64,000 bases of DNA from Flavitalea plasmicola (lineage in GTDB: Bacteria; Bacteroidota; Bacteroidia; Chitinophagales; Chitinophagaceae): contig NZ_JAUOTO010000007.1 in assembly GCF_030546645.1 (NCBI RefSeq), positions 372,001 to 436,000 on the forward strand. The letters are read 5' to 3'. The position numbers and the translations under genes were made by a program. The notes below the pieces were generated by a model. It did no database searches. It was not told the DNA's origin and saw nothing but the letters and a program-made list of their open reading frames with translations. Shown piece after piece: positions 47,933 to 58,415 of the stretch (position 1 is the first letter of the stretch; each line of letters starts with the position of its first letter).

Positions 47933-48203
47933 AGATGGTTTTTTATCACCGGGTATGACTTTCCCGAAATTCGGCCCACCCCCGGTGCACGTTTAATGAT
48001 GGGTCTTCTCGGTTCCACTTAAGGGGCTCAAAGATAGTGATTTCAGGGGTTTGAGTTGTTAAATTCTCATCATTGGCCCCGCAGGGCGGTTCTATTGGGC
48101 GGCCGTTGCGTCGCACCCTTGTACTGTCGCGGGGCGATTCGTCCTTTCTCCGCTCCTGTTGCTTTCACGGCAGATCGCTGAGCCTTCTCCGCTTTTTCGC
48201 CAG

Positions 48204-48688
48204 CCCTAACCGTTCCGTCGCTGTACTTTCCATCTCCGATTAATAGTATTACTACTGTGAACGATGACTATCGCCAAACATCAAAATATATCCCCTACCG
48301 TAGGAAAGTAAGGCTCCTCCACGGCAGGGCATGGCTTAACCCCCGTCTCCGCACATTGCCTTCGCCGCAAACTCCATCAACATTCTCAAGCCCCTTGAAT
48401 GGCAAGCCGCCATCTTTATTCCCTCCAAAATCGTCCCACTTGTCAAATCCCACCCGCTGCAATGAGCCCCCACTTATCGAATCCCCACTGGCCCCCTCCG
48501 CGGCTAGTCAATCAGCTATAAGTCCCCACTAGCCTCCTCCGCGGCCAGCCGATCAGCTATAGCCTGAAGGAGCCTTACTTTGGGCTAGTCGATCCAGCCA
48601 CAATAGCCCAATAGACATCCGCTCAATAAAGGTAAAATGCCCAATGGTACCCAAAGTACAGCGACGGAAGGCATATAGCTGTCGGGAA
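48204..48688 (+). repeat. Nested inverted-repeat element A (non-coding)
   Basis: This element occupies most of the 789-bp gap between uppS and porG. The outer arms TTCCGTCGCTGTACTTT (48213-48229) and AAAGTACAGCGACGGAA (48653-48669) are exact inverted repeats of 17 bp. Inside them AAAGTAAGGCTCCT (48305-48318) and AGGAGCCTTACTTT (48568-48581) are exact over 14 bp. The core holds a 38-bp direct duplication (48483-48520; 48524-48561). The frames are broken and I see no coding signal. Element B at 58 kb is a diverged copy. The orientation was chosen by comparison; the active strand is unknown. The remaining bases 47933-48203 show nothing clear. Confidence 0.7.
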
Positions 48689-48721
48689 TAAGTAATGGCA
48701 ATAAACTTAAAGGAAGAAGAC

Positions 48722-49582
48722 TTAAAGCCCCCCCGGAGCAGGACACTTATACGAACTCAAATTAAATGAAAGCATAACTTCCGCAAACAAATACCCGTCC
48801 CGCTGGTTGGAATACCCCCGCTGACGCCCCTTGATCCCGATAGGGGCCCCCACCTCACTACTGCGGTCCTGCAAGGCATACCAAAGGGTAGGAGAGCCAT
48901 CCGGCAGCAAATGCGTCTGCGCGTCAGGCGCATAATTGGTGCTGACGTCATCTATATAATCCGTGGTGGTAAAGCGGTAAACCACTTCGAAACCCAGGTT
49001 CATATTCCGGTTGAGATTATATTTCACCCCCACGCCCAGGGGAAAGCACATCGCCATGCTACCGTAAGGCTTCCGGCCGGGGTACAACGAAGAACCCTGT
49101 CCCTCGGTTCCCAGCTGTCTTAAATAAACCTTCTGGCCCCGGTAATAAGCATACGGGTCGTAATTGAACACACCGGCCCCAAAAGTGATATACGGGGTAA
49201 ATCGGTCGTAAAGACTACCCGGTACGAACTTGTAGAAGTTGAAATCGCCCTGCAGCGTCAGCTCCCATATATTGGTATTGAAGCTGAGGTTCCGTCGCAG
49301 CATGAATTCGTTATTGGTATTATACCTGTCCGAATACCCGAGAAAAGCATAATGCCCTGCGATCCGCAGGGCAACGTAATTGCCGAACTGTTTACGGAAA
49401 AAAGCGCCCAGGGCCATATTCGGGCGATTGAACCGTGGATTGGGATTCAGGTCCCCGAAATAATGCGAAGCGCCGGCCGAAATACCATACTCACCTTCCT
49501 GAACGATGGCTTCTTCCTGTGCATTCACCCGCAGACAACCCAGCAATAATGATATTACGGTAAGACTCAGCAGCTGCTTCAT
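48722..49582 (-). CDS. porG: PorG-like outer membrane protein (DUF6089), T9SS associated
   Basis: From ATG 49582 the product has 286 residues: a signal peptide (KQLLSLTVISLLLGCLRVNA) and an 8-stranded-type beta-barrel with EYGISAGASHYFGDLNPN, GAFFRKQFGNYVALR, WELTLQGDFNF and a final FAEVMLSFNL. The pattern and the place beside nadK, uppS and bamA match PorG of the type IX secretion system. The frame to 49663 would add an unlikely extension; ATG 49606 is an alternative. It is upstream of element A on the same strand. Confidence 0.8.
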   Translation of the reverse strand: MKQLLSLTVISLLLGCLRVNAQEEAIVQEGEYGISAGASHYFGDLNPNPRFNRPNMALGAFFRKQFGNYVALRIAGHYAFLGYSDRYNTNNEFMLRRNLSFNTNIWELTLQGDFNFYKFVPGSLYDRFTPYITFGAGVFNYDPYAYYRGQKVYLRQLGTEGQGSSLYPGRKPYGSMAMCFPLGVGVKYNLNRNMNLGFEVVYRFTTTDYIDDVSTNYAPDAQTHLLPDGSPTLWYALQDRSSEVGAPIGIKGRQRGYSNQRDGYLFAEVMLSFNLSSYKCPAPGGL

Positions 49583-49788: not shown

Positions 49789-50667
49789 CTAATTCCGGGT
49801 ATCCAGCCCCCAGGAAAGCTTGCCGCGGAGGGTTTGCAGAAAATTATTTTCATTCAGGCGTATCAGGCTCAGGGTGAAAGCCTCACTGCGAACAGCCAGC
49901 TGTACCTGCTTATCCACGATCTCCTTCCTGGAATCCAGGACACAGATGAAATTCTCCGCCCGCCCTTCCACTTCAAAGGAGATGATATTGTCATCCGGCA
50001 CGACAATGGGACGGACATTCAGGTTATGCGGCGCCACCGGCGTGATGACAAAGCTGGCCGATTCCGGGAAGACCACAGGCCCCCCGCAGCTGAGCGAATA
50101 GCCCGTGGAGCCGGTGGGCGTAGCTACGATCAGGCCATCCGCCCAATAGGTATTCAGGAACTCTCCGTTCAGGTACGTGTGGATCTTGATCATCGGGGAA
50201 GTATCCGTTTTATGGATAGCGAATTCATTTAATCCGTAAGGCACATCCCCAAATAATGGCTTGTTGGCATCCAGGTGGATCAGGCTGCGCTTGTCCACCA
50301 CGAATGTGCGGTTGACCAACGCATTGACAGCCGTTGTCAGATCCTCCTTACCAATGCTCGCCAGAAAACCCAGCCGGCCGAAATTGATCCCCAATACCGG
50401 GATGTTCTTATCCCGCACCAATGACACCGTGTCCAGCAGCGTACCATCCCCCCCTAAGCTGATGAGGAATTCGATGGAATCGTCCAGGTCACTGGACTCG
50501 CGGAAACTGGCTATATTGGAGGGAAGCATAAAGGCAGACCCGATCTTTTCCAGGAATGGCTGGTGGATCACTGGCTGAAGCTGCTGTCTTATTAATTCGT
50601 CAAATAATCGCTGAACCCCGCTCTGCTGTTCGTATTCGATCACGCGACTGTAAATGGCTACTTTCAT
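49789..50667 (-). CDS. nadK: NAD kinase
   Basis: The 292-residue enzyme phosphorylates NAD to NADP. GGDGTLLDT (72-80) is the ATP/NAD catalytic motif, NFGRLGFLASI and the GLNEFAIHK strand bind NAD, and TPTGSTGYSLSCGGPVV is the conserved nucleotide loop. The ATG at 50667 is the first base triplet of a 54-bp tandem repeat that extends upstream, so the leader has been triplicated. porG lies downstream on the same strand. Confidence 0.95.
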   Translation of the reverse strand: MKVAIYSRVIEYEQQSGVQRLFDELIRQQLQPVIHQPFLEKIGSAFMLPSNIASFRESSDLDDSIEFLISLGGDGTLLDTVSLVRDKNIPVLGINFGRLGFLASIGKEDLTTAVNALVNRTFVVDKRSLIHLDANKPLFGDVPYGLNEFAIHKTDTSPMIKIHTYLNGEFLNTYWADGLIVATPTGSTGYSLSCGGPVVFPESASFVITPVAPHNLNVRPIVVPDDNIISFEVEGRAENFICVLDSRKEIVDKQVQLAVRSEAFTLSLIRLNENNFLQTLRGKLSWGLDTRN

Positions 50668-50826
50668 TTGGTATTAATGTCTGTTCAATGGTCAAATGCA
50701 GTCGGCTTTGCCTCGTGTCATTTCGAATTAACGTCTTTCAATGGTGAAATGCAGTCAGCTTTCGCTTCGTGTCATTTGGTATTAATGTCTGTTCAATGGT
50801 CAAATGCAGTCGGCTTCGCCTCGTGT
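50665..50826. repeat. Three tandem 54-bp repeats at the nadK start
   Basis: Units at 50665-50718, 50719-50772 and 50773-50826 each begin CATTT on the plus strand. Units 1 and 3 are nearly identical; unit 2 differs at a handful of bases but has the same length. Each contains, on the minus strand, ATGACACGAGGCGAAGCCGA (or a close variant) and an in-frame TGA a few codons later. The first CAT is the start codon of nadK. Confidence 0.85.
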
Positions 50827-50828
50827 CA

Positions 50829-50867
50829 TATTGAGCTGTTAGCTACAAGCTTCAAGCCGACTTTTTA
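50829..50867. repeat. GCTTGNA heptamer repeat, half copy (copy 6)
   Basis: TTAGCTACAAGCTTCAAGCC forms one arm of the heptamer element; no inverted partner is visible. It is adjacent to the 54-bp repeats. Confidence 0.5.
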
Positions 50868-57903: not shown

Positions 57904-58020
57904 CCGGCAGTGGGGGGGCTATTCGGCAGTCGTCACTCACTTGTACTGGCGGTGCGTACTTCGACTTTTGGGTTTTTCTACGCGTTTGCCAGGATTTGCG
58001 TTCTCCGCTTTTATCGGCGA

Positions 58021-58415
58021 CCCTAACCCTTCTGTCGCTGTAATTTCTCTTTCTGTCAGCACCTATCATACTTGAGCCAACACATTATTGAGCACATGTA
58101 AAAATCTCCACCATCGAAATTAAGGCTCCTCCAGGGCAGGGTCGACCTCAAGGCCCCGGAATGGCAAGCTCCCGCCTTTATCCCCTTCAAACTCGCCCCA
58201 TCCGCCAAATCACTGGACTGCCCATTCACTTGTCAAATCCCGCCCACTGCAATTGGCCCCCTCCGCGGCCATCCGACCAGCTATGGCCTGGAGAAGCCTT
58301 ACTTTCCGACGGGAGAAAAGTGCGTCAATGCCCGGCTATAGTCCTGGTTCAATGTTTACTGAAATTGATCGGAGAGAGGAAAGTACAGCGATGGAAGGCT
58401 CATAGCTGTCGGGAA
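58021..58415 (+). repeat. Nested inverted-repeat element B (non-coding)
   Basis: It occupies most of the 676-bp gap between the T9SS gene and the DUF4290 gene. The outer arms TTCTGTCGCTGTAATTT (58030-58046) and AAAGTACAGCGATGGAA (58380-58396) match in 14 of 17 positions, and two of the three differences are G-U pairs if the plus strand is transcribed. The inner arms AAATTAAGGCTCCT (58117-58130) and AGAAGCCTTACTTT (58292-58305) match in 12 of 14. Shared with element A in the same order: CCCTAAC, the arms, GGCTCCTCC-CGGCAGGG, AATGGCAAGC, CTTGTCAAATCCC, CCCCCTCCGCGGC, CAGCTAT and CATAGCTGTCGGGAA. I see no gene here. Confidence 0.7.

What the first reader, a model, noticed from the sequence alone, without database searches (positions are those of the whole stretch)
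48204..48688. Element A: a 485-bp non-coding element with nested perfect inverted repeats, duplicated at 58 kb
The outer arms (17 bp, 48213-48229 with 48653-48669) and inner arms (14 bp, 48305-48318 with 48568-48581) are exact inverted repeats placed symmetrically, and both pairs recur in element B in the same order with the same neighbours. No frame is coding. That conservation against a changed background suggests a selected structure: a large structured RNA, or a non-autonomous mobile element with terminal and sub-terminal repeats. I know of no family matching it.
Basis: seen in the sequence. Interest (0 to 1): 0.82.

Follow-up and report, generated by a model that had tools for sequence, protein, structure and literature searches.

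The report
Dispersed two-hairpin intergenic DNA repeat
The window holds two copies of a non-coding repeat made of two long hairpins facing each other; dozens of related hairpins are scattered between genes in this bacterium and were found in only a few close relatives, so it looks like a small mobile element that cannot move by itself rather than a new RNA gene.

Summary
The inverted arms in element A are real and exact, but they are not one nested structure. A and B each consist of two members of one ~135-bp imperfect-hairpin family, in opposite orientation, joined by a linker. A covariance model gives 57 hits in this genome, with 14 inverted neighbour pairs all in the same relative orientation. 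Three other genomes of 33 searched in the genus have 7, 2 and 1 hits; wider samples gave almost nothing. Pairing is kept inside each unit by two-sided changes (19 of 25 pairs); at variable positions in-unit pairing is 202/216, left-right pairing 85/216. 55 of 58 units lie between called genes. Sites A and B and two others lack the element in syntenic relatives. This supports a lineage-specific, non-autonomous, REPIN-like hairpin element. No enzyme was found: Y1-transposase relatives carry no units within about 6 kb and other transposase classes were not searched. No target duplication was seen. A structured-RNA role is not excluded. New variant of a known kind.

The parts
48198..48333 (+). Element A, left hairpin unit (CCCTA-type foot, CTCCGAT-type tip)
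   Evidence: profile hit 48198-48330; covariance-model hit on the same place (G000:C17:420186-420349)
48334..48552 (.). Element A linker, with a partial copy of itself at a spacing of 41 nt (48491-48540 and 48532-48581)
   Evidence: repeat families D2, D4, D5 shared with B
48553..48684 (-). Element A, right hairpin unit (CTAT-type foot, GTACC-type tip)
   Evidence: profile hit 48684-48553; covariance-model hit (G000:C17:420537-420696)
48102..48197 (.). Left extension shared by A and the copy in L032; probably part of the inserted DNA
   Evidence: L032 3087-3598 aligns to window 48691-48102
58015..58145 (+). Element B, left hairpin unit
   Evidence: profile hit; covariance-model hit (G000:C17:430003-430161)
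58146..58276 (.). Element B linker
   Evidence: shared with A (D4, D5)
58277..58411 (-). Element B, right hairpin unit (CTAT-type foot with CTCCGAT-type tip, the other combination from A's right unit)
   Evidence: profile hit 58411-58278; covariance-model hit (G000:C17:430261-430423)
57932..58014 (.). Left extension shared by B and the copies in L036 and L044
   Evidence: all-against-all BLAST

Best explanation
A and B are two-unit copies of a lineage-specific, non-coding, dispersed DNA element. Its module is a ~135-bp imperfect hairpin: foot, second short stem, a conserved asymmetric region CCGYCGCTGTA facing TAAGGC, a mid stem, and a variable tip. The full form is two modules head to head around a linker; single modules are also scattered. 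SHOWN: multicopy, almost always between genes, restricted to a few species among those searched, four sites without it in syntenic relatives, module pairing preserved by two-sided changes, feet and tips found in all four combinations. INFERRED: the hairpin in single-stranded DNA is the form recognised by an enzyme encoded elsewhere, which excises and inserts the module or pair, much as TnpA-REP (RAYT) is thought to handle REP/REPIN sequences; and palindrome-templated repair helps to keep the arms matched. The enzyme is unknown. I put about 0.9 on 'dispersed non-autonomous mobile DNA element' and about 0.35 to 0.4 on movement as single-stranded hairpins; the figure below is for the statement as a whole.
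For: 57 hits in the own genome; 14 inverted neighbour pairs, all '+-', and one '-+' between two tandem elements; 19 of 25 pairs with two-sided changes, 91.0% of cells paired against 75.7% in shuffles; in-unit against left-right pairing 202/216 and 85/216; 55 of 58 units between called genes; sites A, B, L017 and L036 lack the element in G006, and A and L017 also in G013; no unit in 560 kb of the compared G006 and G013 contigs; distribution; reassortment of feet and tips.
Against: No enzyme with these ends was found, and the RAYT-like protein of G000 lacks the tyrosine of the motif. Insertion edges could not be fixed to the base. Copies are divergent (best partial matches 82-87% over more than 140 nt), so recent activity is not shown. 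Strong covariation would also fit a structured RNA. Single A and B units fold only slightly to moderately better than shuffles as DNA (z -0.62 to -2.50).
Confidence: 0.55

Rival explanations
1. A classical MITE: a deletion derivative of a DDE-type insertion sequence, moved in double-stranded form by that element's transposase acting on its terminal inverted repeats.
For: Non-coding, inverted ends, dispersed between genes, empty sites.
Against: No target duplication signal around 27 solitary units (longest shared word 4.2 nt on average against 3.9 for mismatched flanks); each end is itself a complete hairpin; pairing inside each end is kept by two-sided changes, which terminal repeats of a MITE do not need. 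A parent DDE element was not searched for.
Confidence: 0.18
2. A family of structured RNAs, transcribed from many intergenic loci and selected for their fold; spread by some mobile process but kept for RNA function.
For: Very strong covariation; conserved unpaired stretches; a second group of copies lies beside a Flavo-1-like RNA motif.
Against: No Rfam family at gathering score; mixed placement relative to neighbouring genes, 28 tandem, 19 convergent, 7 divergent; restricted to a few species; two-sided changes outnumber one-sided ones among close copies, 27 against 12, though many come from exchange of whole feet. The G.U against A.C comparison was inconclusive. Expression could not be tested.
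Confidence: 0.15
3. Passive spread: long palindromes copied by template switching or recombination between copies, with no dedicated enzyme.
For: Module reassortment, two-sided changes, and a tandem pair of whole elements on contig C12.
Against: Dispersed insertions into short intergenic gaps with a regular pair geometry suggest a specific process.
Confidence: 0.06

Closest known systems
REP / BIME / REPIN sequences with RAYT (TnpA-REP) transposases (PMC3733652 passages; PMC6006769 passages and sections 12 and 25; PMC3116915 seen only in the search listing)
   Same: Dispersed intergenic palindromes as singles and inverted pairs, restricted to a few species, no coding capacity.
   Different: Unit about 135 bp instead of 20-40 bp; no GTAG or CGTC tag seen at the foot in alignment A1; no RAYT gene flanked by units.
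TIRtron/TIRYT repeat families (PMC3733652 passages) and the 'atypical secondary structures' beside Bacteroidetes subclass 2.6 genes (PMC6006769 section 25)
   Same: Long, partly self-complementary repeats present as singles, dimers and clusters, not tagged with GTAG.
   Different: Those are defined by flanking a tyrosine transposase gene; none is flanked here in the five genes' neighbourhoods and two own-genome loci examined.
Bacterial MITEs (70-300 bp with 15-30 bp terminal repeats, as given in a PMC3733652 passage)
   Same: Short non-coding element with inverted ends, dispersed, sites without it in relatives.
   Different: No target duplication signal; ends are complete hairpins; no parent insertion sequence found (only PF01797 was searched for).
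Flavo-1 RNA (Rfam RF01705)
   Same: Multicopy structured motif in Bacteroidetes; lies beside seven second-group copies by shared flank, with one scored sub-threshold match.
   Different: Not found in A or B; neighbouring motif, not the unit itself.

Membership tests
REP / REPIN | Palindrome of 20-40 bp | tested here: not met
   unit profile 134 positions
REP / REPIN | GTAG or CGTC tetranucleotide at one end of the hairpin | tested here: not met
   by reading alignment A1; CGTC occurs inside the stem of many units but is CGCC in others and is not at the foot
REP / REPIN | Inverted pairs of units | tested here: met
   14 '+-' neighbour pairs among 57 hits
REP / REPIN | Mainly intergenic | tested here: met
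   55 of 58 units between called genes (own gene caller)
REP / REPIN and TIRtron | Cognate tyrosine transposase gene flanked by the repeat | tested here: not met
   no unit at E up to 1 near two G000 Y1 loci; best 9.6 bits, E 0.42, near five loci of G006, G013 and G010
TIRtron repeats | Long self-complementary repeats as singles, dimers or clusters | tested here: met
MITE | Target-site duplication | tested here: not met
   27 solitary units, own flanks 4.2 nt against mismatched 3.9 nt; edges uncertain, so a duplication further out is not excluded
MITE | Ends shared with an autonomous insertion sequence | tested here: inconclusive
   only PF01797 was searched
Structured RNA | Covariation of a consensus helix | tested here: met
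   the structure was derived from the same alignment
Structured RNA | G.U pairs tolerated more than A.C mismatches | tested here: inconclusive
   23 A.C and 19 G.T cells at fixed columns, depends on alignment
Structured RNA | Transcription of the units | not testable with these tools
   no expression data held
Flavo-1 RNA (RF01705) | Score above gathering threshold in the element | tested here: not met
   no match in A or B; 32.2 bits against 42 in the flank of L087
Integron attC site | R'/R'' boxes and an integrase | not tested
   considered from recall because of the hairpin shape; boxes not seen by eye, units dispersed rather than arrayed

The most novel reading that the evidence does not exclude
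A family of giant REPIN-like elements whose working form is a pair of ~135-nt single-stranded DNA hairpins, mobilised by an enzyme outside the known RAYT/TIRYT lines. Its two arms are renewed by copying one another, so that whole base pairs (even G-C to C-G) and whole feet are exchanged in one step.
Probability: 0.22. Interest if true: 0.62.

Novelty: new variant of a known kind. Interest (0 to 1): 0.42.

Why it matters
It adds a large, well-covarying hairpin repeat family in a Chitinophagaceae lineage; a 2018 survey noted only 'atypical' structures beside one Bacteroidetes class of Y1 transposase genes (PMC6006769, section 25). With 57 natural variants in one genome and sites without the element in sequenced relatives, it lets one ask whether long bacterial palindromes are kept paired by selection or by self-templated repair, and which enzyme moves them.

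Tried and rejected
Single 485-bp fold with left-right pairing: favoured by the free-energy fold of A (z -4.47) but contradicted by covariation. RAYT as current mover: the G000 protein on contig C16 reads HIHENP where the subclass motif is YIH[QN]NP (motif from PMC6006769; alignment of the motif by me); G006 and G013 read the same and G010 reads EIHENP. The IS200-like gene on contig C14 keeps HIH and a tyrosine; it lies between genes that I recognise from their translations (no search) as aromatic-amino-acid genes, with no unit near; its G006 counterpart has F at the tyrosine. The G013 counterpart (L189) was fetched but my script did not print it, so nothing is claimed for it. Y1 presence in the genus does not track the repeat: 23 of 33 genomes have a match, 4 of 33 have the repeat, though all four of those have a Y1 match. 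Weak Rfam hits in the window are taken as chance. G.U against A.C as an RNA test: alignment-dependent, dropped. An autonomous element between the two hits of L086 (400 and 5186): both belong to the second group. A third genome in the order scan (G056, 25.4 bits) is taken as chance. Literature: searches listed no paper that I could see describing this repeat; only part of each hit list was shown and only the open PMC library was searched.

Limits: the family and order scans scored 9 and 7 candidates per genome, the own and genus scans 150 of 1920 and 88 per genome, so weak copies can be missed. The pattern is strict: it found three places in one MAG, where the model finds seven hits. Alignment A1 used 46 of the 52 units listed; I left out six interrupted, odd or duplicate ones by hand. 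Gene calls are from my own script; its 58 units include five of G006, and paired units in one gap count twice.

Full report
Observation. B shares the design but its own arms are imperfect. A BLAST of window 48150-48750 against the window's own genome (G000, 8.73 Mb, 19 contigs) gave 64 matches: the query itself and 63 others of 70-97% identity, most of them covering one half of the query. So this is a dispersed family and not a two-copy curiosity.

Anatomy. The partial matches fall on two halves that are themselves related as reverse complements. Iterated profile searches of the fetched loci resolve a unit of about 134 positions. Each unit is an imperfect hairpin: a foot (for example GGCAGCTAT...ATAGCTG or GGCGACCCTA...CAGGGTCG), a second short stem, the strongly conserved CCGYCGCTGTA facing TAAGGC, a mid stem (for example ACTTTCC/GGAAAGT, ACATTGGG/CCCAATGT, AATTTC/GAAATT) and a ~75-nt variable tip. 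A and B are left unit (+), linker, right unit (-). In the own genome a covariance model gives 57 hits at E up to 0.001, 150 of 1920 candidates having been scored. By position these form 14 '+-' neighbours within 600 bp, with one '-+' between two tandem elements on contig C12; the other 29 hits have no second hit that near, although some carry a degraded partner (L036 and L040).

Structure that is conserved. On 46 units and 25 pairs: 91.0% of cells paired against 75.7% after shuffling, 19 pairs with two-sided changes (shuffles 12.2), 178 such cells (shuffles 61.1), covariation score 0.399 against 0.138; the number of further pair types is only slightly raised (34 against 30.1, reached by 4 of 500 shuffles). 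Sliding the partner by 1 to 3 columns removes the signal, but the structure came from this same alignment, with two pairs added by me that form in only 12 and 20 of 46 units. Within ten left-right pairs of units, at 11 variable pairs, bases pair inside the unit in 202 of 216 cells but between left and right in 85 of 216. The kept fold is therefore two separate hairpins, although the free-energy fold of the whole of A prefers left-right pairing (z -4.47). Single A and B units fold only slightly to moderately better than shuffles as DNA (z -1.22, -1.72, -0.62, -2.50; three other units -3.02, -5.37, -2.97). The case rests on covariation.

How stems change. Between close copies (core identity 80-90%, 19 comparisons that share sequences) there are 27 two-sided changes between Watson-Crick pairs, 12 one-sided and 4 other. 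Many of the 27 come from exchange of whole feet, and many swaps are G-C to C-G or A-T to T-A. Foot class and tip class occur in all four combinations: CCCTA foot with CTCCGAT-like tip 16 and with GTACC-like tip 3, CTAT-like foot 8 and 19 (the script left 17 rows 'unclear', which I assigned from the printed strings). I read this as module exchange plus either strong selection on pairing or self-templated correction of the palindrome. The data do not separate these.

Distribution. Genus: 4 of 33 genomes, 57, 7, 2 and 1 hits, the second of G013 and the one of G010 weak. Family sample: 2 of 294, the own genome and G010. Order sample: 3 of 396, the third a 25-bit match that I take as chance. A strict pattern scan of GTDB r220 contigs found three places in one MAG, titled Chitinophagaceae bacterium isolate SCN18_31_3_15_R5_B_50_32, whose three contig lengths equal those of G006 contigs. 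No match in IMG/VR with the pattern, nor in plasmids or phages with BLAST.

Context and sites without the element. Of 58 units examined (five of them in G006), 55 lie between called genes; three overlap a call, which I take as a wrong start (L017) and a spurious ORF (L050, two units). Of 54 with both neighbours: tandem 28, convergent 19, divergent 7; background gaps over 60 bp were 127, 47 and 45. The neighbours of A are uppS and a DUF6089 membrane-protein gene. Aligned flanks leave about 810 nt in G000 at site A against about 60 in G006 and 50 in G013; at B about 640 against about 46 in G006 (not scoreable in G013, where the upstream gene gave no match); at L017 about 610 against 165 and 62; at L036 about 470 against 77 in G006; the L041 site holds unrelated DNA of about 1.2 kb in G006. 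In the upstream region of uppS, 27 of the 30 genus loci fetched keep the membrane-protein gene beside it. The model finds nothing in the 560 kb of G006 and G013 contigs scanned (the first 12 kb of the G013 contig, which does hold a unit, was not in that scan). Insertions are wider than the hairpins and edges could not be fixed to the base. Flanks of 27 solitary units of the own genome show no target duplication; their outer flank is T-rich (46% T), which may be a site preference or part of the element.

Search for a mover. PF01797 (Y1 transposase) has two matches in G000 and matches in 23 of 33 genus genomes. No unit lies near the two G000 genes, nor near five Y1 loci of G006, G013 and G010 (best 9.6 bits, E 0.42). 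The RAYT-like protein has lost the tyrosine of YIHxNP (H in G000, G006 and G013, E in G010). The other gene resembles the subclass 1.2 motifs listed in PMC6006769 (passages). Other transposase classes were not searched.

Known relatives. REPs and REPINs, TIRtrons and the 'atypical secondary structures' of Bacteroidetes subclass 2.6 genes (passages and sections) follow the same plan: dispersed palindromes as singles and inverted pairs. Features that define them (20-40 bp size and GTAG/CGTC tag for REPs, a flanking tyrosine transposase for all) were tested and not met, so I do not file it as a member. It resembles them in architecture.

A second group. Seven copies (L019, L020, L084, L086, L087, L088, L089) share longer flanks on both sides of the unit. 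In four of these loci scanned with a relaxed Rfam limit (L019, L020, L087, L088), one, L087, gave a Flavo-1 RNA match in that flank, below threshold (32.2 bits, gathering 42). [quoted passage not shown]

Verdict. The element is real, repeated, lineage-specific and most likely mobile. The mechanism is inferred. Interest is moderate: the kind is known, but the size, the covariation and the missing enzyme are unusual.

Noticed in passing
G000 genome; inside units of L017, L030, L033, L040, L046: A second, smaller repeat (core GAGCGAAGCGAAGGTTACG, 21 matches with up to 2 mismatches, 0 in the reversed control) sits inside the feet or stems of several units, and similar sequence lies beside the G013 unit (L093). 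It carries a CGTC next to a short hairpin, which recalls CGTC-tagged REPs.
   Followed up: partly
L019, L020, L084, L086, L087, L088, L089: Second group of copies with shared flanks on both sides; one scored a sub-threshold Flavo-1 RNA match. L019 and L020 sit beside genes whose translations look to me like YD-repeat (Rhs) proteins (no search).
   Followed up: partly
L053 1447-2043 (G000 contig C16), with L185, L186, L187: A RAYT-like gene kept in four genomes with the catalytic tyrosine position changed to H or E, so it may be domesticated and inactive as a transposase.
   Followed up: partly
window 50664-50834: Three copies of a 63-nt direct repeat at 54-nt spacing (family D1), just upstream of an NAD kinase gene (49789-50667 minus).
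   Followed up: no
L049 3596-3640 (end of G000 contig C13), L051 15-88 (start of contig C18), L092 26-154 (start of G010 contig C46): Assembly contigs begin or end inside or close to these units, so true copy numbers may be higher than counted.
   Followed up: no
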